A stretch of 64,000 bases of DNA, taken from the NCBI GenBank assembly GCA_027483645.1, contig JAIXUD010000010.1:188001-252000 (forward strand), in the 5' to 3' direction. Source of the stretch: Sphingobacteriales bacterium. Its GTDB lineage: Bacteria; Bacteroidota; Bacteroidia; Chitinophagales; CAIOSU01. Below, one piece after another: positions 27,081 to 43,451 of this stretch. Made by a program: the position numbers and the translations under genes. A model generated the notes under the pieces. The model had not been told where the DNA came from. It did no database searches and worked only from the letters and a program-made list of their open reading frames with translations. Position 1 is the first letter of the stretch; each line of letters starts with the position of its first letter.

Positions 27081-27085
27081 TTTTT

Positions 27086-27701: not shown

Positions 27702-27905
27702 TTATTCTCCCTTGCCTGTTTTAATGTCATCCAAGTCCTCTCGGTCTTTCAACTTCTTGTCTTCCACGTTTTTGTTGAGGAAATGGTTGAGCTTTTCGAT
27801 TGGGGTATTGGTAATTATCTGGCCAAACTCGTTTATACTCATCTCAAACCCTTGCAAGTCTTCATGAACTTGCGGTTTGCCTTCTTTCGGTTTCTTCTTT
27901 GGCAT
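27702..27905 (-). CDS. Small charged protein, 67 residues, unknown function
   Basis: Sequence begins MPKKKPKEGKPQVHEDLQGF and continues with the hydrophobic-charged helix TPIEKLNHFLNKNVEDKKLK. It is Lys-rich, with no signal or membrane segment. It lies downstream of gltX on the same strand, separated by an inverted pair of word arrays. The motif EDLQGFEMSINEFGQIITNTPIE looks like a folded core. I recognise no family. Confidence 0.6.
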   Translation of the reverse strand: MPKKKPKEGKPQVHEDLQGFEMSINEFGQIITNTPIEKLNHFLNKNVEDKKLKDREDLDDIKTGKGE

Positions 27906-27911
27906 GGTGGT

Positions 27912-27943
27912 GGTTATTGGTGGATTAGTTATTGGTTATTAGT
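27912..27943 (+). repeat. Period-7 word array (GGTTATT type), left arm of an inverted pair
   Basis: GGTTATT, GGTGGATT (8), AGTTATT, GGTTATT, AGT. The partner is at 28051-28112. Confidence 0.65.
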
Positions 27944-28050
27944 GAACAGACAACTCAGAAAGTATCACGCTCATGAACTTAATAAAGTTAACCAACTTAT
28001 GATTAACTCCAAACCTTGCAATTACTGTACCAAGTCCATATTTGTTTTAC

Positions 28051-28112
28051 TAATAACTAATAACCAGTAACTAATAACTAGTTTACAAATAACCAATCAA
28101 CTAATAACTAAC
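28051..28112 (-). repeat. Period-7 word array (AATAACY type), right arm, running into gltX
   Basis: Top strand TAATAAC, TAATAAC, CAGTAAC, TAATAAC, TAGTTTA, CAAATAAC, CAATCAAC, TAATAAC, TAACC. It includes the gltX stop codon and its last four sense codons. Confidence 0.65.
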
Positions 28113-29629
28113 CCATCAAATTCCACGAGGCCTTTGTGCATACGCTTCAAGGTTTCGTCGCGGCCGATAAGCACGGCAGTATCAAACACGGCTGGGCCTT
28201 GCATGGTGCCGGTAAGCATAATGCGGATGATTGGCAATACATCACCAAAACCTAAGCCGTGCTGCTCCATAAATAGCTTTACTTCTACTTCTAGAGCCCC
28301 TGCGGTATAATCAGCCAGCTTCTCAACGCGGTCCACCAGTTCAGGGAAAAACTCTTTCTTGCCTTCTTTCCATTTCTTCTTTAGCATGGCCACATCATAC
28401 TGTGCCGGCTCTTGGAAGAAGATTTGGCCCTGATCCCAGAAGTCATTTAAGAAGGTCAATCTCTCACTTAGCAATCGGCTAGCTTCTTCCAAAAACTCGT
28501 TGCTAACAGTTATGCCCTTATCATCCAACTGTGGTTTTACTAGGTTGGCAAGCTCGGCGGGTGGTATGGTTTTGATGTATTGTTGGTTGAACCACTTGGC
28601 CTTCTCAAAGTCGAACTTTGCACCAGCTTTATTAATGCGCTCCAAGCTAAATGCGGCAATCAATTCTTCAGTAGTAAATATCTCTTGTTCGGTACCTGGG
28701 TTCCAGCCTAAGAAGGCCAGCATGTTCAAGAACGGCTCTGGCAAAAAGCCGCGCTCACGGAAACCTTTGCTTACTTCGCCCGTCTCAGGGTTTGTCCAAT
28801 CTAAAGAGAATACCGGGAAACCCAGGCGGTCGCCATCACGCTTGCTCAGTTTGCCATTGCCATCAGGCTTTAGGATAAGCGGTAAGTGGGCGAACTTCGG
28901 CATGGTAGCCTCCCAGCCGAAAGCACGGTATAGCAGCACGTGCGTAGGTGCTGATGGCAGCCACTCTTCGCCGCGGATGACGTGGGTTATCTCCATTAAG
29001 TGGTCGTCTACCACGTTTGCCATGTGGTAGGTAGGCATGCCGTCAGACTTTAGCAGCACCTTATCATCCAATAAACTGCTTTGAAAACTAACCCCACCGC
29101 GTATTACATCTTCAAATACCACTTCTTCATTAGCAGGCACTTTCAGGCGTATTACATACTCATCGCCACGGTTTAGTCGTTCTTTCACCTCATCAGCCGA
29201 TAGCGTAAGCGAGTTGCTCAATTGCATGCGGGTAGTGGCATCGTATTTAAAAGTGCTGGCACCGCCTTGCGTGTTCTCTCGCAGGGTGTTCAAGGCATCG
29301 GCAGTATCGAAGGCATAGTAAGCGTTGCCGCTTGCCAACAACTGCTCCGCATATTGGCGGTACATCGGTTTGCGCTCGCTTTGGCGGTATGGCGCATGTG
29401 GGCCACCAACATGTGGGCCTTCATCTACTTGCAAGCCACACCAAGCCAATGTTTCGATGATATAATCTTCGGCACCTGGCACAAAGCGTTCTTGGTCGGT
29501 ATCTTCAATACGTAGGATAAAGGTGCCGCCCAATTGACGGGCCAAAAGGAAGTTGTACAAGGCGGTACGCACCCCACCAATATGCAGCGGACCCGTAGGG
29601 CTGGGCGCAAAACGTACTCTAGGTTTCAT
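28097..29629 (-). CDS. gltX: Glutamate--tRNA ligase
   Basis: A 510-residue class I aminoacyl-tRNA synthetase that charges tRNA-Glu with glutamate. The chosen start gives MKPRVRFAPSPTGPLHIGG with the HIGH-type motif at 16-19. The frame extends 54 codons further upstream, but that segment is array DNA and breaks the family N-terminus. The KMSKS-type motif is present as GKLSKRDGDRLGFP. The anticodon-binding C-terminal domain ends FDTAVLIGRDETLKRMHKGL. The last residues (LVIS) are encoded in a TAATAAC word array. The SpoU methyltransferase gene lies upstream on the same strand. Confidence 0.96.
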   Translation of the reverse strand: MKPRVRFAPSPTGPLHIGGVRTALYNFLLARQLGGTFILRIEDTDQERFVPGAEDYIIETLAWCGLQVDEGPHVGGPHAPYRQSERKPMYRQYAEQLLASGNAYYAFDTADALNTLRENTQGGASTFKYDATTRMQLSNSLTLSADEVKERLNRGDEYVIRLKVPANEEVVFEDVIRGGVSFQSSLLDDKVLLKSDGMPTYHMANVVDDHLMEITHVIRGEEWLPSAPTHVLLYRAFGWEATMPKFAHLPLILKPDGNGKLSKRDGDRLGFPVFSLDWTNPETGEVSKGFRERGFLPEPFLNMLAFLGWNPGTEQEIFTTEELIAAFSLERINKAGAKFDFEKAKWFNQQYIKTIPPAELANLVKPQLDDKGITVSNEFLEEASRLLSERLTFLNDFWDQGQIFFQEPAQYDVAMLKKKWKEGKKEFFPELVDRVEKLADYTAGALEVEVKLFMEQHGLGFGDVLPIIRIMLTGTMQGPAVFDTAVLIGRDETLKRMHKGLVEFDGLVIS

Positions 29630-29653
29630 AGGGGCAAAGGTAGGTTTTTTCCT

Positions 29654-29688
29654 AGACGCAAGACACAAGACATAAGACACAAGACAAA
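29654..29688 (+). repeat. Period-7 word array (AGACACA type), left arm of an inverted pair
   Basis: AGACGCA, AGACACA, AGACATA, AGACACA, AGACAAA. Bases 29654-29671 are perfectly complementary to 29739-29756. Confidence 0.75.
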
Positions 29689-29738
29689 TTAGGGTTTCAG
29701 TAAATGACTTTTGGTGCCAACCTGCTCTTTTGAAGCAG

Positions 29739-29773
29739 GTCTTGTGTCTTGCGTCTAATAATCTTGTGTCTAT
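29739..29773 (-). repeat. Period-7 word array (AGACACA type), right arm, at a gene 3' end
   Basis: The reverse complement reads AGACACA, AGATTATT (8), AGACGCA, AGACACA, AGAC. It lies at the 3' end of the SpoU methyltransferase gene. Confidence 0.75.
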
Positions 29774-30510
29774 CAATGCCCCTTCCACCACCCCAAAATA
29801 ATCCCCGCTGCCATGGCCGCGTTCAACGATTCGGCACCACCGAAGCGGGGGATGGTGATGGGCAAAGTATAGGGCGCCAAAGAAGGGGAGATGCCGTGGC
29901 TCTCACTTCCTATCAAAAGGATGCCCTCGCTAGGTAGGTGCGTGCTGTAAAGACTTGCCCCATTCATATCAGCAGCGAAAACGGGTATCTGCTTGTGCTC
30001 TTTGAACAGTACTTCAAGGTCGGTATAAATCACTTCCACCCGCACAATGGAGCCCATAGTACTTTGCACGGTTTTAGGGTTGTAGATGTCCACACAATCA
30101 GTGGAGCAATAAACCCGTTTAATACCGAACCAGTCGGCCGTGCGCACTATGGTGCCTAGGTTGCCGGGGTCGCGTACAGCATCCAATGCTATGCTGAGGC
30201 CAGTTGGAGTTGGGACGGTATCAATAGGGGGTATATCAACTAAGGCGATTACTTGGTTGGGCGAGGATAGTGCTGAAGCCTGTTGCAGCTCATCTGCGGT
30301 GATGGGCTCGGCGGCTAAGGCATGTTGCTTAAGCAATGCGCTGTTGGCCTCTATCCATTCGGGCAACGCGAAAAGTTGCGTTATCTTAGCACCTGCTATT
30401 ATAAGTTCGGGTACTATTTTTGCCCCCTCCGCCAAATATTGTTGGTATTGGTGGCGGTATTTATTTCGTTGGAGTGATTGAATATACTTAATTTGTGCCT
30501 TGGACAGCAT
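29773..30510 (-). CDS. SpoU/TrmH-family RNA 2'-O-methyltransferase
   Basis: A 245-residue SPOUT methyltransferase that would methylate a ribose 2'-OH in rRNA or tRNA. An N-terminal substrate-binding segment (QIKYIQSLQRNKYRHQYQQYLAEG) precedes the knot domain: ALDAVRDPGNLGTIVRTADWFG (motif 1), IPVFAADMNGASLYSTHLP to LLIGSESHGIS (motif 2) and ITIPRFGGAESLNAAMAAGIILG (motif 3). The exact target cannot be read. The gene is divergent from the outer-membrane protein gene, and their 5' ends overlap by 16 bp if the longer start of that gene is used. Confidence 0.92.
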   Translation of the reverse strand: MLSKAQIKYIQSLQRNKYRHQYQQYLAEGAKIVPELIIAGAKITQLFALPEWIEANSALLKQHALAAEPITADELQQASALSSPNQVIALVDIPPIDTVPTPTGLSIALDAVRDPGNLGTIVRTADWFGIKRVYCSTDCVDIYNPKTVQSTMGSIVRVEVIYTDLEVLFKEHKQIPVFAADMNGASLYSTHLPSEGILLIGSESHGISPSLAPYTLPITIPRFGGAESLNAAMAAGIILGWWKGH

Positions 30511-30512
30511 TT

Positions 30513-32849
30513 ATGGCCGTTTTGCGGACAATATCCCACATCTTTTTGGTTTGTGCAAGCATAGCGTTGCTATCGGGTTGCGCTAATACCCGTTTCTTGA
30601 GGGAGGGGGAGGTACTCTTTAAGGGTAATAAGGTAGTATATACCGAGGAAGTACCCGAATCAAAACCCAAAGCCCTCTCTGCCGAACTTAAGGAAATAAG
30701 CCAAATGCAACCCAATACCAAGTTTTTGGGCATTGCACAAGCACGGCTATGGTTTTACAACGTTGCCAACCGGCATAAACAAACCAAATTTAGGTTTTGG
30801 ATGAAGGAAAAAATAGGGGAGGCTCCCGTACTTTACGACTCTACCTATGCTGCAAAGTCGGCCCTGCTGATGCAAAACTACCTAGTAAATAACGGTTACT
30901 TTTATGCCGATGTAGATTATAAAACCGCCATTAAGAAGAAAAAAGCCACGGTAGTTTATTTGGTTGACTTGGGCGATGTGTTTAGGGTTAACAATATCAA
31001 ATTTCCGCCTGCCGCTGATTCAGTTACGTCCATTGTACAAGCACGCAAAGATGAGACCGTGCTGGTGCCCTGCGAACCTTTTAAAGTAAGCATGCTAAAG
31101 GACGAACGCGACCGCATTGCCGAAGACTTGCAGGATAAAGGCTATTTCTACTTCAACAGGGAGTATGTGACCTTTGACATGGATAGCAGCAATAGCAAGA
31201 AGCACGTAAATATCTCGATCAAAATCAACCCGCCTTCAGATTCTACCGAGCACGAGCTATACTACATCAACAATGTATTTGTACATACCGATTACTCTAT
31301 TGAGCAGTTTAAAAACACCGTAGAACTGGATACGTTTGCAGTGGGGGAGTACCACTTTATCTATGAAGAGCTGAAGTACCGAACCAACATTCTCATTGGG
31401 GCTATACACTTTGCGCAAGGCCAAAAGTATAGCCGCTTAGATTATAACCTTACCCTCAACCACCTAGCGGAGTTGGGAGTATTTCGCTTTATCAATATCA
31501 AGTTTGTGCCGGTGGAGACTGGGGATGTAAATAAAAAGTACTTGGATTGCATCATAACGCTTACCCCATCAAAAAGACAAGAGTGGGGCGTAGAGGCCAG
31601 CGCCAATAACAATACCACGTTTTTGCTGGGTATATCGGGCACATTTACCTATCGAAATAAGAATATTTTTAAAGGTGCTGAGCTTTTTGAGATAAATGTA
31701 ACCACAGGTTTCGAGACCAACTTTGATAGGGGCAAGGAGTTCTTTAATACCGTTGATATAAGGGCTAATGCTAACTTATACTTCAACAAGTTTATGGTGC
31801 CGTTTCAGTTAGTAAAGTTGGATAAAAGCACCCGGCCGAAAACTATCATCTCCCTACGGAGCAGTTTCCTGCGGCGTATTAATTACTATACCATCTTCTC
31901 TACCAGCGTTAGCTACGGCTACAACTGGCGGCAGGGCGAACAGATTCGGCACCGTTATGACCCTATATCCATTAGCCTGGTGCGAACCTTGTCTCAGAGT
32001 GCTGAGTTTAGGGAGATATTGGACCGCAGTCAAACCCTACGTACCAGTTTTTCGGAGCAGTTGATTGTGGGTATGGATTACACTTTTAATTGGACAGGGA
32101 AATTCGACAAGTATAAAATTTCGCAATGGTTTTTTACTGGTAATGCCGAAACGGCTGGCAACTTTATGCACGGCATATATGGCTTAGCCAATATCAATAA
32201 AGATAATCCACGCCCTTATAAGCTATTCAATATACCATATGCCCAATACGTATTGGTAGATGGCGACATGCGTAATTACCTTAACATTGGCCGCAAGGCG
32301 CGCATAGTATCGCGTCTATTTGGGGGGCTGGGCGTACCTTTTGGCAATTCGGCTGCATTGCCTTACATCAAGCAGTTTTTCTCAGGCGGTAGTACTGGGT
32401 TGCGTGCTTGGCGGGTGCGGTCGCTAGGCCCGGGCTCATTTGTGTTGGAGGGCTCTGATGTAGAGATTGATAACCCCAATATCTTCTTCGACCAAACAGG
32501 CGACATCAAGATAGAGGCCAACCTAGAGCTGCGTTTCGACATCTATAAATTTATAAAAGGGGCAGTATTTTTAGATGCTGGTAATATATGGACGTTGAAG
32601 GCAGACACCTTGCGCCCGGGTGCCAACTTTGAGGTAAATCGATTTTACAAGGAGCTGGCCTTGGGCACTGGTGTGGGCTTCAGGTTTGATTTTTCCTACT
32701 TCGTGTTGAGGTTTGATATTGGCATACCGCTTCACGACCCCGGCTCGCCAAACAAAAACAATTGGGTTATACGCCAATTTAATCTATCAGACCAGCAGTG
32801 GAGGCGAGACAACCTTACTTTTAACTTGGCAATTGGTTATCCGTTCTAA
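30513..32849 (+). CDS. BamA/TamA-family outer-membrane assembly protein with lipoprotein signal
   Basis: About 778 residues from Met at 30513; Met at 30495 adds six residues and would overlap the divergent methyltransferase gene. The N-terminus MAVLRTISHIFLVCASIALL followed by SGC is a lipoprotein signal. POTRA-like segments follow (for example NYLVNNGYFYADVDYKTAIKK and DLQDKGYFYFNREY). A C-terminal 16-strand beta barrel of the Omp85 type comes next, with GGSTGLRAWRVRSLGPGSF as the conserved barrel-lid motif, ending AIGYPF. It probably helps insert or translocate outer-membrane proteins. A lipid-anchored Omp85 of this sort is, from memory, typical of Bacteroidota. Confidence 0.87.
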   Translation: MAVLRTISHIFLVCASIALLSGCANTRFLREGEVLFKGNKVVYTEEVPESKPKALSAELKEISQMQPNTKFLGIAQARLWFYNVANRHKQTKFRFWMKEKIGEAPVLYDSTYAAKSALLMQNYLVNNGYFYADVDYKTAIKKKKATVVYLVDLGDVFRVNNIKFPPAADSVTSIVQARKDETVLVPCEPFKVSMLKDERDRIAEDLQDKGYFYFNREYVTFDMDSSNSKKHVNISIKINPPSDSTEHELYYINNVFVHTDYSIEQFKNTVELDTFAVGEYHFIYEELKYRTNILIGAIHFAQGQKYSRLDYNLTLNHLAELGVFRFINIKFVPVETGDVNKKYLDCIITLTPSKRQEWGVEASANNNTTFLLGISGTFTYRNKNIFKGAELFEINVTTGFETNFDRGKEFFNTVDIRANANLYFNKFMVPFQLVKLDKSTRPKTIISLRSSFLRRINYYTIFSTSVSYGYNWRQGEQIRHRYDPISISLVRTLSQSAEFREILDRSQTLRTSFSEQLIVGMDYTFNWTGKFDKYKISQWFFTGNAETAGNFMHGIYGLANINKDNPRPYKLFNIPYAQYVLVDGDMRNYLNIGRKARIVSRLFGGLGVPFGNSAALPYIKQFFSGGSTGLRAWRVRSLGPGSFVLEGSDVEIDNPNIFFDQTGDIKIEANLELRFDIYKFIKGAVFLDAGNIWTLKADTLRPGANFEVNRFYKELALGTGVGFRFDFSYFVLRFDIGIPLHDPGSPNKNNWVIRQFNLSDQQWRRDNLTFNLAIGYPF

Positions 32850-32853
32850 TAGG

Positions 32854-33315
32854 TTACTTACTCATAATTGTTTGCAATTCTTTATTAGAAATGTCTGGCG
32901 GGTTAATGCCTTCGAGCATTTTTTGTATCACCAGTTGACCTACTTCGACTGCATGGCGCTTTTCCTTAAATCCAGATGCGCCTTTTTTGCCTGGGATAGT
33001 GGTTTGCAGCATTACCAACTTACCATCTTGCCTTATTTCGTATCCTAGGGTGCCGTCGCTATTCAATACAACATTCATACTGAATTGTTCCTTGTAAGAA
33101 GGTTGGGTTACCTCATACATTTTGGTGGGGTCAATGGGGGTAGTATCTCGGGCAATAGTGGTGTTGGTTGCAGTAGTATCTATGCTTGGCACAGCGGCGC
33201 TATTGTTTTGGCTATTAGTAGTTGCCGTTGAAGGTTGATTGCTAGAGTTTCTTTGGCAAGCCATAAATGTACAAGTAATAAAAAGCGCCGTAAGTACACA
33301 GTTTTTGAAAGCCAT
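32854..33315 (-). CDS. DUF4907 lipoprotein
   Basis: A 153-residue lipoprotein: MAFKNCVLTALFITCTFMAC gives the lipobox, followed by a Ser/Thr/Asn-rich linker (about 23-60). The C-terminal domain (YEIRQDGKLVMLQTTIPGKKGASGFKEKRHAVEVGQLVIQKM) matches the DUF4907 pattern of a one-residue-type Gly-Lys turn followed by a helix and PPDIS. The function of the family is unknown. It is convergent with the outer-membrane protein gene, with four bases between them. Confidence 0.75.
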   Translation of the reverse strand: MAFKNCVLTALFITCTFMACQRNSSNQPSTATTNSQNNSAAVPSIDTTATNTTIARDTTPIDPTKMYEVTQPSYKEQFSMNVVLNSDGTLGYEIRQDGKLVMLQTTIPGKKGASGFKEKRHAVEVGQLVIQKMLEGINPPDISNKELQTIMSK

Positions 33316-33432
33316 AACAATGGTTAGTTTGTTTCCGCAATTTTACGATTGTTGCGCATCAATTCCAAATCCATTTATTCAGCGTGGGTTTTTATGTAAC
33401 TTAGCGGCAACTTAAAAATCCCCCCAAACGAG

Positions 33433-34092
33433 ATGAAATTTTTCTTAGATACGGCGAACCTACAGCAGATACAGGAAGCTGCGGCCATGGGCATATTGGA
33501 TGGTGTAACCACCAACCCATCACTAATGGCTAAAGAAGGCATTAAAGGCCAAGACAAAATACTGAAGCACTACAAAGCTATTTGCGATATAGTGGGCAGC
33601 GGCGACGTAAGTGCTGAGGTAATTGCTACCGATTATGAGGGTATGGTTCGGGAAGGTGAGATATTGGCCACTATACATGAGAACATTGTGGTAAAGGTAC
33701 CAATGACGAAAGATGGCGTAAAAGCCATCCGCTACTTTACCGATGCTGGCATCCGCACCAATTGTACGTTAGTGTTTTCTGCGGGGCAGGCTATCTTGGC
33801 TGCTAAGGCTGGTGCTACTTATGTATCCCCATTTATCGGCCGTATTGATGATATCGGCTGGGATGGTATGGACCTCATCACCCAAATAGTGCACATCTAT
33901 GGCGTACAGGGCTTTGAGACGGAAGTATTGGCGGCATCCATCCGCAATCCTTTGCACATTATTAAGTGTGCCGAAATGGGCGCTGATGTGGTTACTTGCC
34001 CCTTGTCAGCTATTGAGGGACTGTTCTTTCACCCGCTTACTGATAGTGGTTTGCAGAAGTTCCTAGAAGATCATAAGAAAGTTAATGGTTAG
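33433..34092 (+). CDS. fsa: Transaldolase-like fructose-6-phosphate aldolase
   Basis: A 219-residue short transaldolase-family protein, with the length of fructose-6-phosphate aldolase or TalC rather than full transaldolase. The start MKFFLDTANLQQIQEAAAMG and GVTTNPSLMAKEG are the family N-terminus. The Schiff-base Lys is at about 88 in ENIVVKVPMTKDG, and SPFIGRIDDIGWDGM is the phosphate-site region. It would act on C6 or C7 sugar phosphates in the cytoplasm. Whether it is an aldolase or a transaldolase cannot be settled by eye. It ends in a shared bidirectional terminator. Confidence 0.9.
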   Translation: MKFFLDTANLQQIQEAAAMGILDGVTTNPSLMAKEGIKGQDKILKHYKAICDIVGSGDVSAEVIATDYEGMVREGEILATIHENIVVKVPMTKDGVKAIRYFTDAGIRTNCTLVFSAGQAILAAKAGATYVSPFIGRIDDIGWDGMDLITQIVHIYGVQGFETEVLAASIRNPLHIIKCAEMGADVVTCPLSAIEGLFFHPLTDSGLQKFLEDHKKVNG

Positions 34093-34105
34093 TTATTTGG
34101 TCAAT

Positions 34106-34128
34106 AGACGATGGACGATGGACCATGG
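34106..34128 (+). repeat. Period-7 word array (RGACSAT type)
   Basis: AGACGAT, GGACGAT, GGACCAT, GG. Together with the inverse array at 35651-35681 it brackets the DUF5689 gene. Confidence 0.65.
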
Positions 34129-34194
34129 TTTGGTTCAAAAGACAACAAACCACGGACAAGAGACCACTTGAGTTTTGCTCAATTACAAAATCAT

Positions 34195-34238
34195 AAAAAG
34201 AAATCGCCCCGCTGAGTTTAGCGGGGCGATTTCTTTTT
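34195..34238. terminator. Bidirectional terminator
   Basis: A 19-bp perfect stem (right arm AGCGGGGCGATTTCTTTTT, 34220-34238) with a 6-base loop between convergent genes; A-run on the left and T-run on the right serve both strands. Confidence 0.92.
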
Positions 34239-34254
34239 ATTCAATAACCAAATA

Positions 34255-35586
34255 TTAATTATCGCCAGCTTTGTAGCGCCAAGCTACGTAGGTGGTACCT
34301 ACAAAGTTGGCAAGCTCAACGTTACCAGAAGACACAAAGCTCGCACCAAAGCCACCGCTATCGCCACCAGCAATAGCAGGGCATACTTTCGTCCAGGTGA
34401 AGTTCTCTGGGTTGTTGCCACCATCGTAGTCGGTGCTAATCAGTACCTCTATACGGGCGCCGTCATCAAATGCATCTTGGGTAGTAAAGGTTAAAATTTC
34501 ATCGCCGGTAATGGTTACTTGTGGTGCAATAAGCCACGTTGTTACTTCTTGTTGGCCGGTTTGGTAGGCTGATATTTTTGCATAAGTTTCGCCGTTGCGG
34601 GTTTCGCTTACCCAGGTAAGGCTGCCCACTTGGGTTATGTTTTTCCAGCCGGGTAAGTTGATATTGCCAGATGAGCCATTGAAGTCCTCATCAAGCAAGG
34701 CTTGAGAGATATTGAAGATGCGCACTTTATCCAAATGGAAACGGGTAGTGCCGTTTACAGGGCCAACGGTTTCAATACATGGGCAACCAGCAGCAGTAAT
34801 CTCAATATCGTTTAAGCCACGGAATTTCAACTGGCTGTCGTCATTAAATACGCTATATACGCCAACAATATTGAAGCTTTCGGTTGGAGTGTTAGTACCC
34901 ACAAACTTGGCAAAATCGCTGGTGCGGGCAATAATAACACCGTTATCGCAATCAATGATGCTACGGTTGCGTGCAGAGCTGCCACCTACTGTGGCCCAGC
35001 TTACGCCAGCATCGTTACCAGCCATACGCACGCTGGTTAATTTAATCAAACGGCTTTGGTGCACATCAGGGTCGAGTTGGCTCGAGGTAATTTCCAAAGG
35101 TACTAGCTCTTGGTTGCAGGCACCTTTTTTAATAAAGTCGCTTACCAATGATTGTGGTATGCGCTCCAAACTGTTATCATCAGGGTTTACTGATGCGCCT
35201 ACTTGTATCAAGCCACCGTAGTTGCTTAGGTACAGGTTGGTCATCTTTACATATACCTTCCTGCCAATTGGGAAGTCGGTATACATGTTGGTTTGGTCAA
35301 CCAATAGGAGGATACCGGCAGTAGCATCTTGTATCACCAGCTCTTTGTAGAAGTTCCCTTCTTGGTCGCTAGATATTACCACACCCTCAATTATCAAGGT
35401 ATCTTCAATTTTTAGGTTGCCACCAGCATAGCGTGCCTTCAGGTCGGCAATAGTGATGTTAGCAGTAAGGGCCTCGTCGTTGCAGCCATTGTTGTCGGGT
35501 TGGTCAAATTCGTCTTTAACACAACTGCCCATGGTAAATGCTAGGGCAAACATCAATATGCTCAGGATACTTTTCTGTTTGTTCAT
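34255..35586 (-). CDS. DUF5689 lipoprotein with choice-of-anchor J domain
   Basis: A 443-residue surface or periplasmic lipoprotein: MNKQKSILSILMFALAFTMGSC is a lipoprotein signal. The DUF5689 region follows (LTANITIADLKARYAGGNLKIEDTLIIEGVVISSD... to DIEITAAGC, about 40-270). A C-terminal choice-of-anchor J/MAM-like domain is marked by DEDFNGSSGNINLPGWKNI, WLIAPQVTITGDEILTF and AWRYKAGDN. The strong upstream partner is the TonB-dependent receptor on the same strand, 98 bp away. The two probably form an outer-membrane uptake pair like SusC/SusD, although DUF5689 itself is not characterised. Confidence 0.85.
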   Translation of the reverse strand: MNKQKSILSILMFALAFTMGSCVKDEFDQPDNNGCNDEALTANITIADLKARYAGGNLKIEDTLIIEGVVISSDQEGNFYKELVIQDATAGILLLVDQTNMYTDFPIGRKVYVKMTNLYLSNYGGLIQVGASVNPDDNSLERIPQSLVSDFIKKGACNQELVPLEITSSQLDPDVHQSRLIKLTSVRMAGNDAGVSWATVGGSSARNRSIIDCDNGVIIARTSDFAKFVGTNTPTESFNIVGVYSVFNDDSQLKFRGLNDIEITAAGCPCIETVGPVNGTTRFHLDKVRIFNISQALLDEDFNGSSGNINLPGWKNITQVGSLTWVSETRNGETYAKISAYQTGQQEVTTWLIAPQVTITGDEILTFTTQDAFDDGARIEVLISTDYDGGNNPENFTWTKVCPAIAGGDSGGFGASFVSSGNVELANFVGTTYVAWRYKAGDN

Positions 35587-35650
35587 TTTCGTAGGAGTAT
35601 ACTAGGAATTAGAAAGTAGTAATTAGATTTTTATAGTTTTTGTTCTAGAA

Positions 35651-35681
35651 CCATGGTCTATTGTCCATCGTCCATTGTCTG
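35651..35681 (-). repeat. Period-7 word array (RGACSAT type)
   Basis: The reverse complement reads AGACAAT, GGACGAT, GGACAAT, AGACCAT, GG. It lies between the TonB receptor and the DUF5689 gene. Confidence 0.65.
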
Positions 35682-35684
35682 TTT

Positions 35685-38462
35685 TTAAAACTTCAGTCCA
35701 ACTTGCACAAAGAAGTTAGTACCGAATGCATAAAAATAATTCGGCGGGAAACGTTCCACATTACGTTCTTCTGAGTCTAATCGGGTTTGTTCAAATCCAC
35801 CGGTTATAAACTTACGATTATTGAGGATGTTGTTCACACCCACTGTTATCATTAAGTCGGTTGTGCGTTCCAATTTGTCAATCCACTTGTTCAAGCGGAA
35901 CGATGCACCACCAAAGAAGTCCAAGGTAAATTGACCTTTCATCTCTTGTTGTTCCAAAATTTGGCCCCAAAGCTCTGAGCCCGGCTCTATCAAATCCACC
36001 GCTTCGTTGGTACGGCGGATGCGATTGAAATCGATATAGATGCGGTCAAAGTAATTCAGGTATAGGCTGGCAAACCAAAATTTGTTGCTACGGTAATTGA
36101 TGCCCAAGTTATTGGCTATTTGTGGGCCATTGGCCACAAAGAAATTCTTCGAAAAAATGGTAATATCTTCAGCCAATATTTCAGCGCTATTATCGAGGGT
36201 TATGGTAGCTTTTTGGCGGCTGGTATATATATTCTGGCCCAATGCAGATACTAAGCTAACGGAGAAGCCAGCAGGCAAAGTAGCTTCAATGGCAAATTCG
36301 CCGCCCATGTGTCGCTTATCGATATTGGTGAGGGCGATGTTTACGAAGTTGCGCTCCAAATCGTAATAGAAGCTATACGTATCGGTACCGTTGTTAAACT
36401 GGGTATAGTAAAATATAGCGCGGGCTTTTAGCTTAGGCGCGCGTAATAAGTACCCACCTTCAAAACTATAGATCTGCTCGCTTTCAAGGTTATTTACCAC
36501 TTGGTTTCGGGTACGTGGCTGTATGTAGGCCGAGCGGGAGAATGGCGCACGGGTCATGTAACCGGCGTTGGCCACTAAGTAATTACGACCATTGATCTTG
36601 TAAGTTACACCACCTTTCAAGCCATAGTTTACAAACTTAAGTTTCTCTGAGTCGCCTTTTGAATCGTTAGGAAACAAGCCACTACGGTAGTTGCCGGTGC
36701 GGTAAAAACTGGTGTATGATACATTGGCGGCAGCAAAAAACTCCCATTTGCTTAAGTTTACAATGCCTTGCACCCAACCAGTAGGCTTGCTAGTGGTAAT
36801 GTTGTAATCGTAACCGTAGCGGTCTCCTTCCTTCACTAAGCGGTTTGGGTTATCCAAATCTGTCTGTATGGCTTCTGAGCTGTCAATAAAATCACGCTCG
36901 GCAAACTGGTTGATATCCAAAAATACATCTCCGCCCAGCAAATCATCTACCAACTTGTAGTTGAAGGTGCGCTGCCAAACATAGCTGGCACCAGCTTGCA
37001 ATATGAACATTTCAGAAAACCTGTGCTCAAATACGGTGCTAGCACTGAAGCGCTGCTTATCGAAGCGCCTATCTTCTATTATATAGCGCGATAGGTTTAC
37101 CGTGGTATCACGGCCAGTGCCATTGTAATTTTCTATCAACTCGCTGCTGCGAGAGTTTACATTATAAAAGCGGTCCCAATCCAGTTGCAACAGGTCAGGG
37201 TTAGTTTCATAGTTGTTTATGGCTTGCTGGCGCAGGGCGCTATCTTCTATATAACTAGGCAGGTTGCGGTAGTAGTCGGGGCGTGGGTCGGGTGCATTGT
37301 ACCAATTAACGGTGGTGCTACCATTGCTACCAAACTGGAAACCAACTGCGGAGTTAAGGTTGCTCTTGTCGCTTATCTTCCAAGTATGGCTAAGGATGCC
37401 AGTGGGTAAGTGGCTATGTACAATATCACTATTGCGCTTCTCACCGTTTTGGTAGCCCCAGTTAGGGTTATAAAAGTTGGAACCAGCTAAGTCGTAAGCT
37501 TCTTGTACGGTAGGCGAGGTTTTGCCTCGCTTGGTAGGTGCCCCAAAAATGCTGAGGTTGATGTTATGGTTTTTAAGCACTTTCTCTACCGCCGCGAAGT
37601 ATGACCATGCATCGTAACTAGTGCCATCCACATAGCCCTGTTGTGCCCAGCGGCGCGATGCCGAAAGAGATACTGCCCAACCTTTTGGCAATACGCCTGT
37701 GTTGTACGTACCCATTAAGCGGTGGGTATAGCTACGGTTGCTGGCAGCATAGCTTATGCGTATCTGTTTGCGTTGGCTGGCAGCACCTGTTTGCACACCC
37801 GATGCACCACCGAAACCACCGAAGGTAAAGTTTACTGGATCAAGGCCCACAACGTTTTCGCGGCTGCGGAATACATCATTCAAGCCGCCCCACTGGTTCC
37901 AGTATGCGCGGCCGTCTTCTAGGTCGTTCATGGGTAGGTTGTCCATGTATACATCCGTGTTCTCGCTATCATATCCACGGATGCGGAAACGGTAACTGCC
38001 AAACATAAATGCTGCGGTATTGATAAACACATCGCGTGAAGAGGTAAGCAAGCCTGAAACGTTCTGGGCGCCATCGCCTCGCAAATCATTTTCACCTAAG
38101 GAAACGGTTGGAATCAAATCCTCGGCCGAAAGCATATCGGTACCGCCTTCTTGGGGTCGTAATTTAATAGAGTCTAACACGTTATCGCCGGCAACTACGT
38201 TAATGTTTACCACCAAGTCATTATACAGGTCGGTTTGTGCCACCAGGGCATAGCTGCCTACGGGTATGTTTTCAAGCAAAAACGACCCATCTATGCTCGT
38301 AATGGTGCTGTAATCGGTTCCTTCTAAAAATACCACCACATTAACCATGGTACGGCCACTAAGAGAATCGGAAACATTGCCAGAGATACGGGCATTTTGG
38401 GCAAATACCGCCAATGTGGAAACCAACATGGCCACGGTAAAGAATAACCTTGATTGAAGCAT
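35685..38462 (-). CDS. TonB-dependent receptor with carboxypeptidase-like regulatory domain
   Basis: A 925-residue outer-membrane receptor. A signal peptide (MLQSRLFFTVAMLVSTLAVFAQ) is followed by a CarboxypepD_reg-like domain (ARISGNVSDSLSGRTMVNVV, about 24-110). The plug domain contains VSGLLTSSRDVFINTAAFMFGSYRFRIRGYD and NDLEDGRAYWNQW. The rest is a 22-strand-type barrel ending NYFYAFGTNFFVQVGLKF. Such receptors import large nutrients or metal chelates using TonB energy. The substrate is unknown; the downstream DUF5689 lipoprotein is the likely partner. A -7-like promoter element lies upstream. Confidence 0.93.
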   Translation of the reverse strand: MLQSRLFFTVAMLVSTLAVFAQNARISGNVSDSLSGRTMVNVVVFLEGTDYSTITSIDGSFLLENIPVGSYALVAQTDLYNDLVVNINVVAGDNVLDSIKLRPQEGGTDMLSAEDLIPTVSLGENDLRGDGAQNVSGLLTSSRDVFINTAAFMFGSYRFRIRGYDSENTDVYMDNLPMNDLEDGRAYWNQWGGLNDVFRSRENVVGLDPVNFTFGGFGGASGVQTGAASQRKQIRISYAASNRSYTHRLMGTYNTGVLPKGWAVSLSASRRWAQQGYVDGTSYDAWSYFAAVEKVLKNHNINLSIFGAPTKRGKTSPTVQEAYDLAGSNFYNPNWGYQNGEKRNSDIVHSHLPTGILSHTWKISDKSNLNSAVGFQFGSNGSTTVNWYNAPDPRPDYYRNLPSYIEDSALRQQAINNYETNPDLLQLDWDRFYNVNSRSSELIENYNGTGRDTTVNLSRYIIEDRRFDKQRFSASTVFEHRFSEMFILQAGASYVWQRTFNYKLVDDLLGGDVFLDINQFAERDFIDSSEAIQTDLDNPNRLVKEGDRYGYDYNITTSKPTGWVQGIVNLSKWEFFAAANVSYTSFYRTGNYRSGLFPNDSKGDSEKLKFVNYGLKGGVTYKINGRNYLVANAGYMTRAPFSRSAYIQPRTRNQVVNNLESEQIYSFEGGYLLRAPKLKARAIFYYTQFNNGTDTYSFYYDLERNFVNIALTNIDKRHMGGEFAIEATLPAGFSVSLVSALGQNIYTSRQKATITLDNSAEILAEDITIFSKNFFVANGPQIANNLGINYRSNKFWFASLYLNYFDRIYIDFNRIRRTNEAVDLIEPGSELWGQILEQQEMKGQFTLDFFGGASFRLNKWIDKLERTTDLMITVGVNNILNNRKFITGGFEQTRLDSEERNVERFPPNYFYAFGTNFFVQVGLKF

Positions 38463-38488
38463 AGGTAGGGTACAAGTGAAAACGGGTA

Positions 38489-38496
38489 CAAAGTTA
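38489..38496 (-). promoter_or_regulatory. Probable -7 element of the TonB receptor operon
   Basis: On the minus strand TAACTTTG, an exact match to TAnnTTTG, about 27 bases before the receptor ATG. No clear -33 TTTG. Confidence 0.45.
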
Positions 38497-38516
38497 ACAA
38501 TAAGAGCTGAATAATT

Positions 38517-38550
38517 AGACCACGGACGATAGACGATAGACCATGGACGG
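38517..38550 (+). repeat. Period-7 word array (RGACSAT type), outer left arm
   Basis: GGACGAT, AGACGAT, AGACCAT, GGACGG in register. The inverse partner is at 38797-38826. Confidence 0.7.
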
Positions 38551-38561
38551 TGAATGTAATC

Positions 38562-38592
38562 GGCTATTGGTTAATTGGTTACTAGTTATTAG
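38562..38592 (+). repeat. Period-7 word array (GGTTATT type), inner left arm
   Basis: GGCTATT, GGTTAAT, TGGTTAC, TAGTTAT, TAG. The inverse partner is at 38743-38772. Confidence 0.55.
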
Positions 38593-38742
38593 AGGCAAAC
38601 AAGTACTTCTGATACAAAAAGTCTCGAAATCACTTGGCTATTCTTAATGAAACCATAACCTGTATAAAGACCTATCCAGGTTTATTTAGTTATTGGTGTG
38701 AAGCATCGAACGAACGTGGACTTTCGACTTTAGGCCCTTTGA

Positions 38743-38772
38743 AACCAATAACTAACAACCATTAACCAATCC
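38743..38772 (-). repeat. Period-7 word array (AACCAAT type), inner right arm
   Basis: Top strand AACCAAT, AACTAAC, AACCATT, AACCAAT, CC. Confidence 0.6.
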
Positions 38773-38796
38773 ACGAAAAATCAATTTTTGAAGCAT

Positions 38797-38826
38797 CCAT
38801 GGTCCTTCGTCCATGGTCCATCGTCC
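38797..38826 (-). repeat. Period-7 word array (RGACSAT type), outer right arm
   Basis: The reverse complement reads GGACGAT, GGACCAT, GGACGAA, GGACCAT, GG. Confidence 0.7.
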
Positions 38827-38934
38827 AAACAACCAACAACTTTTTTTCGCCGCTTCCGTAGAACAAGTGTGTTTGAGCCCTCAATGGGCACCGGAGTATA
38901 GCAATAGTGCTGAGTGATTTTGTGACGAAAAGAA

Positions 38935-40914
38935 TTGTCTATGCGGTTTTGGAATAGTGTCTCGCTAAGGCCTGCCCTTACTTTTATATTTATCATCTTG
39001 TTGGGGCGTATCGCCTCCGCACAGGGCGATGCAAACGAACTTTATTGGTATGTAGATGGCAAAAAGCTATCCTATGACTGGAGCCCAGAGCATTTTGCTG
39101 TGCAGGTACCTACCGATGAGCAGGTGCAACCCCTTACTACCACCTTCATGTCGAAAAAGGAAGCCGTAGTTTGTGCTACCGATAAGTATATTGAGTTTCA
39201 ATTTACTGCTAATATACCGGCTACCAGTAAGCAAAACCATATTCAAGAAATTTTGGCCCAATACAATGCCAACCAAGTGCTACCGGTGTTCTACCAAAAA
39301 GGCACTTCGCAGCCACTTTTTATGGACAACCAGATTATGGTTCGTTTCAAAAAGGGCAACATCAGCCGCGATGAGGTGGCAAATTTTATGCAAAAGCACA
39401 AACTTGCTTTGCAAAACCCGCAGGTATGGAACATGCCCGAGAGCGGCAAGCAGGTATTTATCTTCAGTATGCTTAACAATACGTTGGAGTATACCGCAGG
39501 ACACTTGGCAGGGCAGCTTTTTGAGCAAGAAAAGCAACTGGTAGCTTCGGCCCAACCCAACAGAATGAATATTGTGGTTTCACCTGATGGTGAGGCGATG
39601 GACCCTTCTTCAAACCCCGCCTTTTACAAATCATGGCACTTGGATAATAATGGACAGCAGCTGTTTTGTAGTGCCAAATCGGGTACCGACAATGCTGATG
39701 TACAAGTAAAAGAAACTTGGAGCCTTGGCTACACTGGCGAAGGTATTACCATTGGGGTGGTTGATATTGGTGGATTTGATTACAACCACCCAGCAGTACA
39801 AGGCAGGTTTGCGGCGGGCTGGGATTGTATTAATAATCGTAGCTATGATGCCGGTAACTTCTATTTTTCTGATGCTAGCCAAGGCCATGGCATGGGTGTA
39901 GCGGGTATAATTGTAGCCAGCAGTAGCAACGGTGCCACTGGTGTTGCCCCAGGCGCAAAAGTTTCGCCATTGCTTATCAATGGCTCTGAAGCTTCTATTG
40001 TATTGGCTTTGCAAAAGGCCCTTGAGATGAATCTGGATATTGTAAACATGAGCTTTGCAATGGGTTATAGCGAGGCGGTAAAGCAGCAGGTGCTTAACCT
40101 AGCCAACCTAGGCCGTAACCAATACGGTACCGCTTTGGGTACCATAATCATTACCAGCCATGGTAATAACGGTGCCGACGATGCCGTGAGCCCACAATGG
40201 CCAGCAGCCTATGATGAGGTGATTAGTGTAGCCGCATCAACCCCAGATGACCGACTGAAAACTAGTGCAGACAATTGGAGTATTGGCAATACTTGGGCTA
40301 CCAACTATGGTGGTATGCTCGATTTGGCTGCGCCTGGCGTTTGCATCTATACTACCGACATAAGCGGCCCTAATGGATATGCCAGTACCGATTACACAGG
40401 GTTGCAAAAAACCAGTGCCGCCGCACCCATAGTTGCGGGTGTTGCTGCCTTGCTATTAAGCAAAAACAATGGGCTGCCTTGGAAAGAAGTGCGTACCATA
40501 CTATTTAATAGTGCCGACAAAGTACATAGCAGCGAGTACAACTATAGCCATGATGCCAGCAAAGCTGGCCATAGCCGCGAAATGGGCTACGGCCGCGTAA
40601 ATGCCTACAAAGCGCTGAGCGAGGTAAGTGTAGGTATTACTGATGTACCAACTTTTAAAGTGGATATTAAGGTAGTAAACCCTGTTGAAAACGGGCAGCT
40701 AGAAATCTTCTACCCGGGAGCTGAGCTAGAAGATAACATGACAGTGGGCGTGTATGATATGAGCGGGAAGCTTATGGCTACACAAGCGCTGGGCCGACAC
40801 GAAGATTATGTAACAATTGATGTAATGGACATGACCCCAGGTATGTACTTTGCCCGCTTTATGTACCGCGAAGATGAGCTGGTGCAAACAGTGAAGTTTG
40901 TAAAATTATGGTAA
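38935..40914 (+). CDS. Secreted S8 (subtilisin-like) serine protease with T9SS sorting domain
   Basis: A 659-residue secreted protease. After a signal peptide (MRFWNSVSLRPALTFIFIIL) comes a long N-terminal pro-region (about 30-215: ANELYWYVDGKKLSYDW, FMDNQIMVRFKKGNISRDE). The subtilase domain has Asp277 (VVDIGGFDYNHPA), His318 (GHGMGVAGI), the oxyanion Asn in TSHGNNG and Ser494 (KTSAAAPIVAGVAALL). The C-terminus, VVNPVENGQLEIFYPG to MTPGMYFARF, is a T9SS type A sorting domain. The next gene encodes a protein resembling its pro-region but lacking the protease domain. The product probably acts on the cell surface or in the medium. Confidence 0.92.
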   Translation: MSMRFWNSVSLRPALTFIFIILLGRIASAQGDANELYWYVDGKKLSYDWSPEHFAVQVPTDEQVQPLTTTFMSKKEAVVCATDKYIEFQFTANIPATSKQNHIQEILAQYNANQVLPVFYQKGTSQPLFMDNQIMVRFKKGNISRDEVANFMQKHKLALQNPQVWNMPESGKQVFIFSMLNNTLEYTAGHLAGQLFEQEKQLVASAQPNRMNIVVSPDGEAMDPSSNPAFYKSWHLDNNGQQLFCSAKSGTDNADVQVKETWSLGYTGEGITIGVVDIGGFDYNHPAVQGRFAAGWDCINNRSYDAGNFYFSDASQGHGMGVAGIIVASSSNGATGVAPGAKVSPLLINGSEASIVLALQKALEMNLDIVNMSFAMGYSEAVKQQVLNLANLGRNQYGTALGTIIITSHGNNGADDAVSPQWPAAYDEVISVAASTPDDRLKTSADNWSIGNTWATNYGGMLDLAAPGVCIYTTDISGPNGYASTDYTGLQKTSAAAPIVAGVAALLLSKNNGLPWKEVRTILFNSADKVHSSEYNYSHDASKAGHSREMGYGRVNAYKALSEVSVGITDVPTFKVDIKVVNPVENGQLEIFYPGAELEDNMTVGVYDMSGKLMATQALGRHEDYVTIDVMDMTPGMYFARFMYREDELVQTVKFVKLW

Positions 40915-40927
40915 GGTTTGGTAGCTG

Positions 40928-40951
40928 GTTGATCTGTTGATTGGTTGATCA
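40928..40951 (+). repeat. Period-8 word array (GGTTGATC type), left arm of an inverted pair
   Basis: GGTTGATC, TGTTGATT, GGTTGATC. Its reverse complement matches about 40979-41002. Confidence 0.65.
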
Positions 40952-40961
40952 GGAATATGTA

Positions 40962-41026
40962 AACCCACTGATAGGCCGATTAACCAATCAACTGATACAC
41001 CGATTAACTGATAAACCGATTAACCG
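40962..41026 (-). repeat. Period-8 word array (AACYGATY type), right arm
   Basis: Top strand includes AACCAATC, AACTGATA, CACCGATT, AACTGATA, AACCGATT, AACCG, reaching eight bases before the next ATG. Confidence 0.7.
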
Positions 41027-41033
41027 AAAACCA

Positions 41034-41987
41034 ATGAGAAATCTCCAGAAAATAACCATATTCGGCTTTGGGGCGGTTATCATCACCATGGCATTTGCGT
41101 TCCGCTCGGGAAGCAATGATCCATACTATTATGCCAACGGAGAGAAGCTCTACTGGCAATCTCAATACGACGTTTATGCGTTCCGCACGGTGGACGAGGA
41201 CTCGTTTAAAATGGCCCTTGATTCGGCTGTCGTTGATTATGTAGATTACCGTGGAAATCAACCGGACAAACTGCATTTTGTATTTTTTAGTGCCAATAGC
41301 AGCAACTGGCAGCGGCTGCAGGTAATTGATGATATTGAACGGCATAATTCATTTTCACGCTCGTTTCCAGTGGTTACCATGTTTGAGTATACGCCTGCCG
41401 AAGCTGGCCTGTGGTATGTAGCCGACGACCAGATAATGCTAATGTTCAAAACCGATAGCTTACGCCAAGCGCACCTGCCACGCTTAATGGCTGAATACAA
41501 CTTAGAGCAGGTAAACGACCCTAGCAATTTGCCGGCAGGCGGAAACTATGCCTACATATTGAAGTGGGATGTGAGGGATAGCCTTGTAATGAATAGTATT
41601 GACCTGAGCCGGACCATGTTTGAGCGTGATAGCGCAGTGCTATGGTCGGCAGAGCCGAACTTAATACGCGGCTATGAGCCGGTTTGGCTAGAAGAAGACG
41701 ATATGAGCACGGCTGCCCCCAGTTTGGATAGCGAGGCTAGCGCGGCAACCCTATATGTGGTAAGCCAACCGGGCGGTACACTAAATGTTCATGTTATTTG
41801 CAAACAGCCGCATTATGTTTTCCGCATGTACGATTTGTTTGGTCGCCTACTTACCGAGCGTCGCCTAACGGCTGAAGATACCCAACTGGACCTCAATATC
41901 GGCCATCTTTCTCGCGGTATCTACTTCAGTACTTTGGAAACCACTGGCGGGCAGCCGTTTGCTACCGTTAAGTTTTTGAAGGAGTAA
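41034..41987 (+). CDS. Secreted protease-propeptide-like protein with T9SS sorting domain
   Basis: A 317-residue protein starting MRNLQKITIFGFGAVIITMA (signal or membrane anchor). The in-frame upstream extension to 40941 is word-array DNA, so the later Met is preferred. Residues about 25-225 resemble the pro-region of the upstream subtilase in order: YYYANGEKLYWQSQYDVYAF, then GLWYVADDQIMLMFKTDSLR, then AVLWSAEPNLIRGYEPVW. The subtilase domain is missing and the chain passes straight to a type A sorting domain (FRMYDLFGRLLTERRLT to LSRGIYFSTLET). It could be a stand-alone inhibitor, chaperone or duplicated remnant of the protease. The gene follows the protease after 119 bp. Confidence 0.8.
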   Translation: MRNLQKITIFGFGAVIITMAFAFRSGSNDPYYYANGEKLYWQSQYDVYAFRTVDEDSFKMALDSAVVDYVDYRGNQPDKLHFVFFSANSSNWQRLQVIDDIERHNSFSRSFPVVTMFEYTPAEAGLWYVADDQIMLMFKTDSLRQAHLPRLMAEYNLEQVNDPSNLPAGGNYAYILKWDVRDSLVMNSIDLSRTMFERDSAVLWSAEPNLIRGYEPVWLEEDDMSTAAPSLDSEASAATLYVVSQPGGTLNVHVICKQPHYVFRMYDLFGRLLTERRLTAEDTQLDLNIGHLSRGIYFSTLETTGGQPFATVKFLKE

Positions 41988-42215
41988 TTATCTATTTATT
42001 AGCAGCTACTTCCTGCTCATCATACACTTTTGCGATGCTGTTTTACTTGGTTTAGTTGGTTTGCATAATTTGGCATACCTAGATATTGTGGTTACTTAGT
42101 TTCCCTATTTTTTATGGTAGTTATCTTAGCGCATTAGCAACTAACAATTGGTACTGCGGTATGTAAATGGGTTACTATCCCTAATATGCTAATAGATAAA
42201 AGTTTACTGCATTAT

Positions 42216-42252
42216 TCAAAAAAAAGGCCGACACCCTGAGGGGCATCGGCCA
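42216..42252 (-). terminator. Terminator of the fasciclin gene
   Basis: Stem GGCCGA / TCGGCC with a further CCC / GGG pair around a 2x2 internal mismatch; on the minus strand it is followed by a run of T. Confidence 0.75.
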
Positions 42253-42276
42253 TATAAAAAAGGAACCCACTAAAAA

Positions 42277-43236
42277 TCAAGGAGCAGGCAACAATACTTT
42301 GTCAATAGCGTGAATTACGCCATTGGTTGCCTGTACGTCGGTGGCAACAATGTTGGTCACACGACCGCTGCCATCAGTGATTTTGGCACCGCCAGTCAAA
42401 CCAATGGTGAAGGTACCGCTAGCCAACGGCGTTACTATTTGGCCTTCGGTTAATGAACCTGCCAATACGTTGCCATTTGCTACGTGGTAATTTAATACAG
42501 CTTCCAATGTTGAAGTTGGGATGCTATCCAAAGAAGTTGCACCTAGTTCAACCAACAAAGAATCAAATGCAGCGTTTGTTGGTGCAAATACAGTGAAAGG
42601 GCCAGTACCTGACAATACTGTAGGGTAGTTAGTGGTCAAACCTGGACGAGTCAAAGCCGCTACCAAGGTGCTGAAGTTAGGGTCAGCCAAAGCAAATGTA
42701 GGTATTACTGGCAAGCCAATAACAGCATTAACTTTATGCACCACACCGTTGCTTGCTTCTAGGTTGGCAGCAGTTACAGTCGATCCACCGTTCAAGGTTA
42801 CACCGCCAGTGGTGCTTACATACAATTTTAGCGCGCTGGTAGTAGTACCATAAGTAGCCAAAGTGCTCAAATAGCCAGTAGTAAGGGCAGTACTTGGCAA
42901 CTCTTGGGCTATTACGTGGTTAAGCAATACTTGGGTCAACAATGCTGTTGGCACGTCATCCAAAGTTGCAAAACCATTTGCAGAAAGGAAAGCGGCAAAT
43001 GCAGCATTGGTAGGTGCAAACACAGTAAAGGTACCTTCGGCAGTTAATTCGTCTACCAAACCAGCTTTGGTAACGGCAGCTACCAAAGAAGTAAGGCTAG
43101 TATCGCTTTGTGCAAGCTCTACAAGGTTAAGGGCTTTGGGGGTATTATCATCATCATCGTCATCTTTGTCGCATGATACAAAGGCGATAGATGTTGCCAA
43201 AAACAACATCATAAGTAGTGGGATTCGATTGAACAT
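42277..43236 (-). CDS. Lipoprotein with two fasciclin domains
   Basis: A 319-residue surface lipoprotein. The signal MFNRIPLLMMLFLATSIAFVSC has a lipobox Cys and is followed by an acidic linker DKDDDDDDNTP. Two fasciclin (FAS1) domains follow: LNLVELAQSDTSLTSLVAAV with GTFTVFAPTNAAFAAFL, and FALADPNFSTLVAALTRPG with GPFTVFAPTNAAFDSLL, each ending in a VVHKVNAVI- or VIHAIDKVL-type strand. FAS1 domains usually mediate adhesion. The gene has its own terminator and stands alone. Confidence 0.92.
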   Translation of the reverse strand: MFNRIPLLMMLFLATSIAFVSCDKDDDDDDNTPKALNLVELAQSDTSLTSLVAAVTKAGLVDELTAEGTFTVFAPTNAAFAAFLSANGFATLDDVPTALLTQVLLNHVIAQELPSTALTTGYLSTLATYGTTTSALKLYVSTTGGVTLNGGSTVTAANLEASNGVVHKVNAVIGLPVIPTFALADPNFSTLVAALTRPGLTTNYPTVLSGTGPFTVFAPTNAAFDSLLVELGATSLDSIPTSTLEAVLNYHVANGNVLAGSLTEGQIVTPLASGTFTIGLTGGAKITDGSGRVTNIVATDVQATNGVIHAIDKVLLPAP

Positions 43237-43451
43237 TGTTAAAGTGGTTTTTTGAGTTAAGAATACAGCAATAACATCGCTGTTTTAATTTTGTTTAAAG
43301 AAATCGTAAAAAGATAACAGAAAAGTTAAAGTGTACCATTAGAAGCATTGCGTAATAAGGCAATGTGGTAAAAATTTGCAGGTTGTTGTTATCAGTAACT
43401 CCTTAATTATCGGCAATGCCATCAGGTAAGCCACTTTACAAAATCACCACA

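What the first reader, a model, noticed from the sequence alone, without database searches (positions are those of the whole stretch)
38517..38826. Nested inverted word arrays in one divergent promoter region
Between the TonB receptor and the secreted protease, two different word families are arranged A-B-(150 bp)-B'-A'. The nesting of two families suggests that one whole palindromic unit was inserted or built at once, not two separate events. It is placed between two divergent surface-protein genes and could influence both.
Basis: seen in the sequence. Interest (0 to 1): 0.6.

Follow-up and report, generated by a model that had tools for sequence, protein, structure and literature searches.

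The report
Mirrored heptamer arms between genes
The mirrored A-B-B'-A' repeat is real, but it is one example of many short seven-letter word arrays that this bacterium's genus places, pointing inwards, at the ends of the gaps between genes, and whose words change from species to species.

Summary
A (38515-38556), B (38557-38592), B' (38738-38770) and A' (38796-38828) are colinear mirror arms: alignment score 30, 0 of 1000 shuffles reach it; the strand folds with z about -4.

It is not an isolated unit. The A word has 457 near matches in this 4.27-Mb genome against 38 for the reversed control. In a 464-kb sample, 88 of 291 intergenic regions carry heptad or octad arrays, pointing inwards (p = 3.5e-8) and often flush with stop codons.

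The 'one unit built at once' reading is weak. B arms are always paired in the sample (7 of 7); A arms are mostly single, though paired somewhat above chance. Two other sites show one A arm gained alone. The locus lies on a gene order not found in the relatives examined, whose flanks lack the arms.

Best reading: nested, independently acquired copies of dispersed word-arm elements with defined ends, retained in non-coding space. At orthologous gaps words are swapped between species, sometimes on both arms together. No transposase for the A or B arms was identified.

The parts
38515..38556 (-). outer left arm A: degenerate heptads (GACSATR type; C-strand reads CCATGGTCTATCGTC towards the receptor-like gene)
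38557..38592 (-). inner left arm B: GGTTATT/GGTTAATT words
38593..38737 (.). middle, 145 bp; no second copy of 38593-38742 in the own-genome sequence held; contains a small hairpin at 38657-38682
38738..38770 (+). inner right arm B'
38780..38796 (+). leader ATCAATTTTTGAAGCAT just inside A'; TTTTGAAGCA or TGCAGCA leaders are shared by several word families elsewhere
38796..38828 (+). outer right arm A': four heptads CCATGGTCCTTCGTCCATGGTCCATCGTCCAA
38489..38496 (-). TAACTTTG, matches the Bacteroidota -7 box TAnnTTTG (consensus recalled) upstream of the receptor-like gene; TAAATTTG at the same place in the relatives
   Evidence: and recalled consensus
35685..38462 (-). receptor-like gene (925 aa; CarboxypepD_reg domains)
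38935..40914 (+). S8 protease gene (start codon uncertain, 38935 or 38941)
35653..35684 (+). single A arm flush with the stop of the receptor-like gene; missing from G002 and G003

Best explanation
The locus is a composite of dispersed intergenic word-arm elements. Each arm is a short module of about 28-31 nt (four heptads, or octads in one family), pointing inwards from the edge of an intergenic region; several families have a common inner leader (TTTTGAAGCA or TTTTGCAGCA), and A arms often end outside in C(C/T)AA. An inner B..B' pair, which elsewhere in the sample always comes as a pair, is enclosed by two outer A arms, which elsewhere mostly come singly. The arms were most likely acquired in more than one step by a copying or mobilising process that places them in a fixed orientation, and were kept because the space between a gene's end and the next gene's promoter is free. 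The mirror look follows from the fixed inward orientation and from pairing of some families. The site is also a gene-order junction not seen in the relatives. Shown: anatomy, copy number, polarity, flush placement, nesting, absence in relatives, word swapping. Inferred: acquisition in steps, a mobilising process, selective neutrality. Not shown: any effect on the two genes.
For: Copy number: 457 near matches against 38 in the control. Arrays occur in gaps, not genes: 57 lag-7 arrays in 70 kb intergenic, 2 in 389 kb coding, 0 in shuffled gaps. Polarity: left G>C 44 of 66, right C>G 47 of 64, odds ratio 9, p = 3.5e-8; A arms 20 of 21 inward in the sample and 30 of 31 in the A-selected loci. Flush: 25 of 56 stop-side arrays lie within 5 nt of the stop codon. 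Defined length: 28 of 60 A arrays are exactly 28 nt and only 2 are longer. Leader inside against outside: A 24 against 2 of 54, C 8 against 0 of 18, H 5 against 0 of 8. Other A-A' pairs enclose different inner layers (A2 in L012; D in L023; none in L015). A whole mirrored unit in G000 (155 bp) where three relatives have 8-11 bp (L042 13219-13373). Single A arm gained at two sites.
Against: No second copy of the middle and no transposase with A or B arms at its ends was found; of seven Y1 transposase genes six have inverted flanks, all of other sequence. The leader is absent from families B, Oct, D, F, G (0 of 10, 17, 11, 4, 4) and not enriched for A2 (4 inside, 5 outside, of 14). The left A arm of this locus has no leader. 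A arms are paired more often than chance in the lenient search, which leaves room for a paired unit. Non-array gap edges show a weaker skew of the same sign (odds ratio 2.6), so part of the polarity may have another cause.
Confidence: 0.5

Rival explanations
1. One compound palindromic element (A-B-middle-B'-A') was inserted in a single event.
For: All four arms lie between the two points where homology to relatives stops (about 38501 and 38833); colinear mirror; a whole mirrored unit of another family was gained elsewhere (L042 13219-13373).
Against: No second copy of the middle in the own sequence held; other A-A' pairs have other inner layers; A arms mostly single.
Confidence: 0.17
2. Local origin: heptad arrays arise by replication slippage and one arm is copied to the other through hairpin-templated repair (quasi-palindrome correction), so arms change in concert.
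For: Arms within a gap resemble each other more than arms of different gaps (mean 11.1 against 6.9, p <= 0.001); at L042 1934-2027 both arms carry other words in another species with nearly the same gap length.
Against: The same words recur at hundreds of sites and several families have the same leader; length is capped near four heptads; arms score below 10 against each other in 12 of 27 gaps.
Confidence: 0.15
3. Selected regulatory element: arms act as binding sites or RNA structures controlling both divergent genes, like the translational role suggested for TAACTGA repeats.
For: Arms abut the promoter region of the receptor-like gene (about 19 nt from a -7-like box) and the conserved upstream stretch of the protease; a long stem is possible.
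Against: Relatives keep both genes without any arms; A arms occur at stop edges more often than at start edges (14 against 7 in the sample); words differ between species.
Confidence: 0.1
4. The arrays are scars of gene-order rearrangement (made when two broken ends are joined).
For: This locus and three other array-bearing gaps of the same 20 kb are junctions.
Against: Over 52 scorable gaps, junctions are 11 of 28 with arrays and 6 of 24 without, p = 0.21; arrays also sit in gaps whose gene order is conserved (17 of 28).
Confidence: 0.05

Closest known systems
TAACTGA heptamer direct repeats (MacGregor 2015, PMC4679880; abstract, one section and passages read)
   Same: Short intergenic heptamer arrays of two to six copies, a fixed orientation towards start codons, found in some Bacteroidota beside 'other heptamer direct repeats'; close relatives of two species there had shorter gaps without repeats; a role in rearrangement was suggested.
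   Different: Here many degenerate word families, mirrored inward arms at both start and stop edges, nesting, a shared leader; exact TAACTGA doublets are absent.
REP/BIME palindromes and TIRs of Y1 (RAYT/TIRYT) transposases (PMC3733652; passages read)
   Same: Many small intergenic palindromic elements, often near 3' ends of genes, sometimes inserted inside other palindromes.
   Different: Arms are heptad arrays, not 20-40 nt stem-loops; the Y1 genes here have other inverted flanks.
MITEs (recalled)
   Same: Inverted arms around a non-coding middle, many copies.
   Different: No shared middle found, A arms mostly single, no parent transposase or target duplication identified.
Cyanobacterial STRR heptamers (recalled, no paper read)
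   Same: Heptanucleotide intergenic arrays.
   Different: Mirror polarity and word swapping are not part of what I recall of them.
DRT10 telomerase-like reverse transcriptase (PMC12632851; search listing and passages)
   Same: RNA-templated tandem repeats; the template loop is poorly conserved between systems.
   Different: 9-nt repeats in antiviral cDNA, not chromosomal arms; no such enzyme was searched for here.

Membership tests
TAACTGA heptamer repeats | direct repeats of TAACTGA | tested here: not met
   0 exact doublets in 464 kb of own and 317 kb of relatives' sequence; 35 single copies in the own sample
TAACTGA heptamer repeats | fixed orientation towards the start codon, intergenic, few copies per set | tested here: met
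   start-edge right arrays C>G 27 against 6, left G>C 25 against 9; arrays nearly all intergenic
REP/BIME | 20-40 nt stem-loop tagged by GTAG or CGTC | tested here: not met
   arms are four-heptad arrays; leader is mainly GAAGCA or GCAGCA
REP/BIME and TIRtrons | a Y1 transposase gene flanked by the same repeat | tested here: inconclusive
   7 Y1 genes; 6 of 7 have inverted flanks of other sequence; one (L205) lies inside a D..D' arm pair, none seen inside A or B
MITE | repeated copies with a common middle | tested here: not met
   middle 38593-38742 has no other match at E <= 1 in the own sequence held, roughly an eighth of the genome or less
MITE | target-site duplication | not testable with these tools
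   no relative has the empty site, gene order differs
DRT10-like RNA-templated repeats | reverse transcriptase and template RNA carrying the word | not tested

The most novel reading that the evidence does not exclude
The arms are made by a templated repeat-adding activity: a nucleic-acid template specifies a species-specific word, G-richer-strand heptads are added outward from gene edges at broken or nicked DNA, and a change of template swaps the word at many sites. This would explain inward polarity, a cap of about four heptads, a common leader with variable words, and concerted change of both arms, and would be a telomerase-like process on a bacterial chromosome.
Probability: 0.05. Interest if true: 0.95.

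Novelty: new variant of a known kind. Interest (0 to 1): 0.55.

Why it matters
Intergenic heptamer repeats in Bacteroidota have been mentioned (PMC4679880) but not explained. A genome in which about 30% of sampled gaps carry them, with strong polarity, defined arm length, nesting and different words at the same orthologous gap in different species, makes the question of how such arrays spread and turn over directly testable. It also warns that mirrored repeats between divergent genes need not be operators of those genes.

Tried and rejected
Chance: rejected. Rearrangement scars: tested with two synteny tables; weak and not significant (gaps of 50 bp or more: arrays in 8 of 10 broken and 17 of 31 conserved gaps, 41 without anchors dropped; junctions 11 of 28 with arrays against 6 of 24 without, p = 0.21, 30 without anchors dropped). 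Mobile element with conserved middle: no support. Virus or plasmid carriage: a 22-mer of A has no exact match in viral contigs; the 341-bp locus has no match among plasmids. Rfam: only two tRNAs in the window. Sequence words in papers: none of six typed words found. Literature searches; no paper describing mirrored multi-family heptad arms was listed, within an open-licence library only. A weak-pattern pairing test was discarded because the palindromic CCATGG core makes one array match both strands; one search replaced it. Gene starts come from my own simple caller, so start-edge distances are rough; stop-edge distances are firm.

Full report
Setting. The window is G000:C21:188001-252000 of a 4.27-Mb genome in 23 contigs. 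Its nearest relatives held are named as Bacteroidota metagenome assemblies (a Sphingobacteriales MAG and a MAG labelled Chitinophaga pinensis, at 76-77% identity of the receptor-like protein).

Observation. The two halves align through both families in order with score 30, against a shuffled maximum of 16 in 1000, and fold as a nested stem (RNA z -3.99, DNA z -4.12).

It is one case of many. With up to three mismatches the A word has 222 plus 235 matches in the genome against 17 plus 21 for the reversed word. In a sample of 464 kb (window plus 20 stretches at fixed places; 373 genes and 291 intergenic regions of 30 bp or more by my caller), lag-7 arrays number 57 in 70 kb of gaps, 2 in 389 kb of coding sequence and 0 in shuffled gaps; lag 8 gives 20, 0 and 0. 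At a laxer threshold 88 of 291 gaps have arrays, of about ten word families.

Rules of placement. Of 130 arrays in 86 gaps (after dropping low-complexity ones), left ones are G>C (44, against 19 C>G, 3 equal) and right ones C>G (47, against 12, 5 equal), p = 3.5e-8; edges of gaps without arrays show the same sign more weakly. 37% lie within 10 nt of a gene against 14% for random placement; at stop edges 25 of 56 lie within 5 nt of the stop codon. For A alone 20 of 21 arrays point inwards. Array length is capped: 28 of 60 A arrays have exactly four heptads and 2 have more; the shorter counts come from a strict pattern that a substitution breaks. Inside the array several families share TTTTGAAGCA or TTTTGCAGCA: A 24 of 54, C 8 of 18, H 5 of 8, outside 2, 0 and 0; B, Oct, D, F and G have none, and A2 is not enriched.

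Pairing and nesting. In 27 gaps with an array in each half, arms match as inverted repeats better than in permutations (11.1 against 6.9, p <= 0.001); 15 of 27 score 10 or more. B is strictly paired (7 of 7, expected 0.31); A is not in a strict search (1, expected 0.38) and moderately in a lenient one (6, expected 1.65, p = 0.003). The five A-A' pairs found within 600 bp have inner layers of A2, D, B or none. A whole Y1 transposase element with its own inverted flanks sits inside a D..D' pair whose left arm starts a few nt after the preceding stop codon (L205). PMC3733652 (passages) reports REPs inserted inside palindromes, so nesting as such is known.

Relatives at this locus. The receptor-like gene is found in G001, G002 and G003, where its upstream neighbour reads as another gene, and the protease in G002, G003 and G004 (in G001 only its end) with another neighbour; none of the six flanks has arms. 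Homology ends near 38501 and resumes near 38833. Over all scorable gaps arrays and junctions are not significantly associated.

Turnover. At orthologous gaps with conserved gene order, of 73 comparisons arrays are in both species in 16, in G000 only in 20, in the relative only in 4 and in neither in 33. L042 13219-13373 is 155 bp with mirrored octads in G000 and 8-11 bp in three relatives. At L042 1934-2027 G000 has GGTTATTGG-type and G002 AAATTTGAAAATG-type words on both sides, with gap lengths of 94 and 91. At L042 16311-16465 the four species have arrays at both edges with three different word sets in gaps of 142-155 bp. Some gaps keep the word (L046 5891-6050, TCTTGTG in three species). 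Single A arms were gained at window 35653-35684 and about 57300-57335, both next to stop codons.

Distribution. With two mismatches the A word is frequent in G000 (256) and present in the four congeners (17 to 60), near absent in the two other genera of the family (1 and 0), and high in one distant genome (G037, 103). Heptad arrays of other words, some mirrored, occur sporadically in loci from other Bacteroidota.

Mechanism. I favour stepwise acquisition of dispersed arms with defined ends, with B as a paired unit and A mainly as single arms. The mobilising agent is not identified. Local slippage with hairpin copying explains concerted arms but not the shared words, the leader and the length cap. 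A regulatory role is possible; the A arm begins about 19 nt from a -7-like box of the receptor-like gene, but relatives do without the arms. DRT10 shows that bacteria can make templated tandem repeats (PMC12632851, passages, 9-nt units); a chromosomal counterpart is my boldest reading and is untested.

Noticed in passing
L205-L210 (G000:C2:178217, C10:667434, C1:82217, C9:70281, C5:3604, C21:179335): Six of seven Y1 transposase genes lie between inverted repeats of up to about 150 bp; some of these repeats resemble families dispersed in other gaps (TIRtron-like).
   Followed up: partly
L205 1316-2165: A Y1 transposase with its own inverted flanks sits inside a D..D' heptad pair that starts a few nt after the preceding stop codon: a nest with a gene in the middle.
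   Followed up: partly
sampled gaps, e.g. window 3505-3819, L047 13320-13531, L043 19467-19866: Other dispersed intergenic palindromes, such as CGTCATTGCGAGGAACGA, TTAACCACAAAGAACACAAAG and CCCTTCGACAAAAGCTCAGG types.
   Followed up: no
L042 16311-16465 and orthologous gaps in G002, G003, G004: Similar gap length and arrays at both edges in four species but three different word sets.
   Followed up: partly
G037 (same order, other family): 103 matches to the A word, 80 of them on one strand, in a distant genome while most others of the order have few or none.
   Followed up: no
G046 and G058: The reversed (not complemented) A word used as control has 36 and 41 matches, so these genomes may carry their own related arrays.
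   Followed up: no
window 13025-13888: 3.5 copies of a 246-bp tandem repeat (84% match) inside a long predicted gene.
   Followed up: no
window 27081-43451: The blocks between 27.1 and 43.4 kb map to several separate places in G003, where the genes on either side (about 26-27 and 43.5-45.7 kb) are neighbours.
   Followed up: partly
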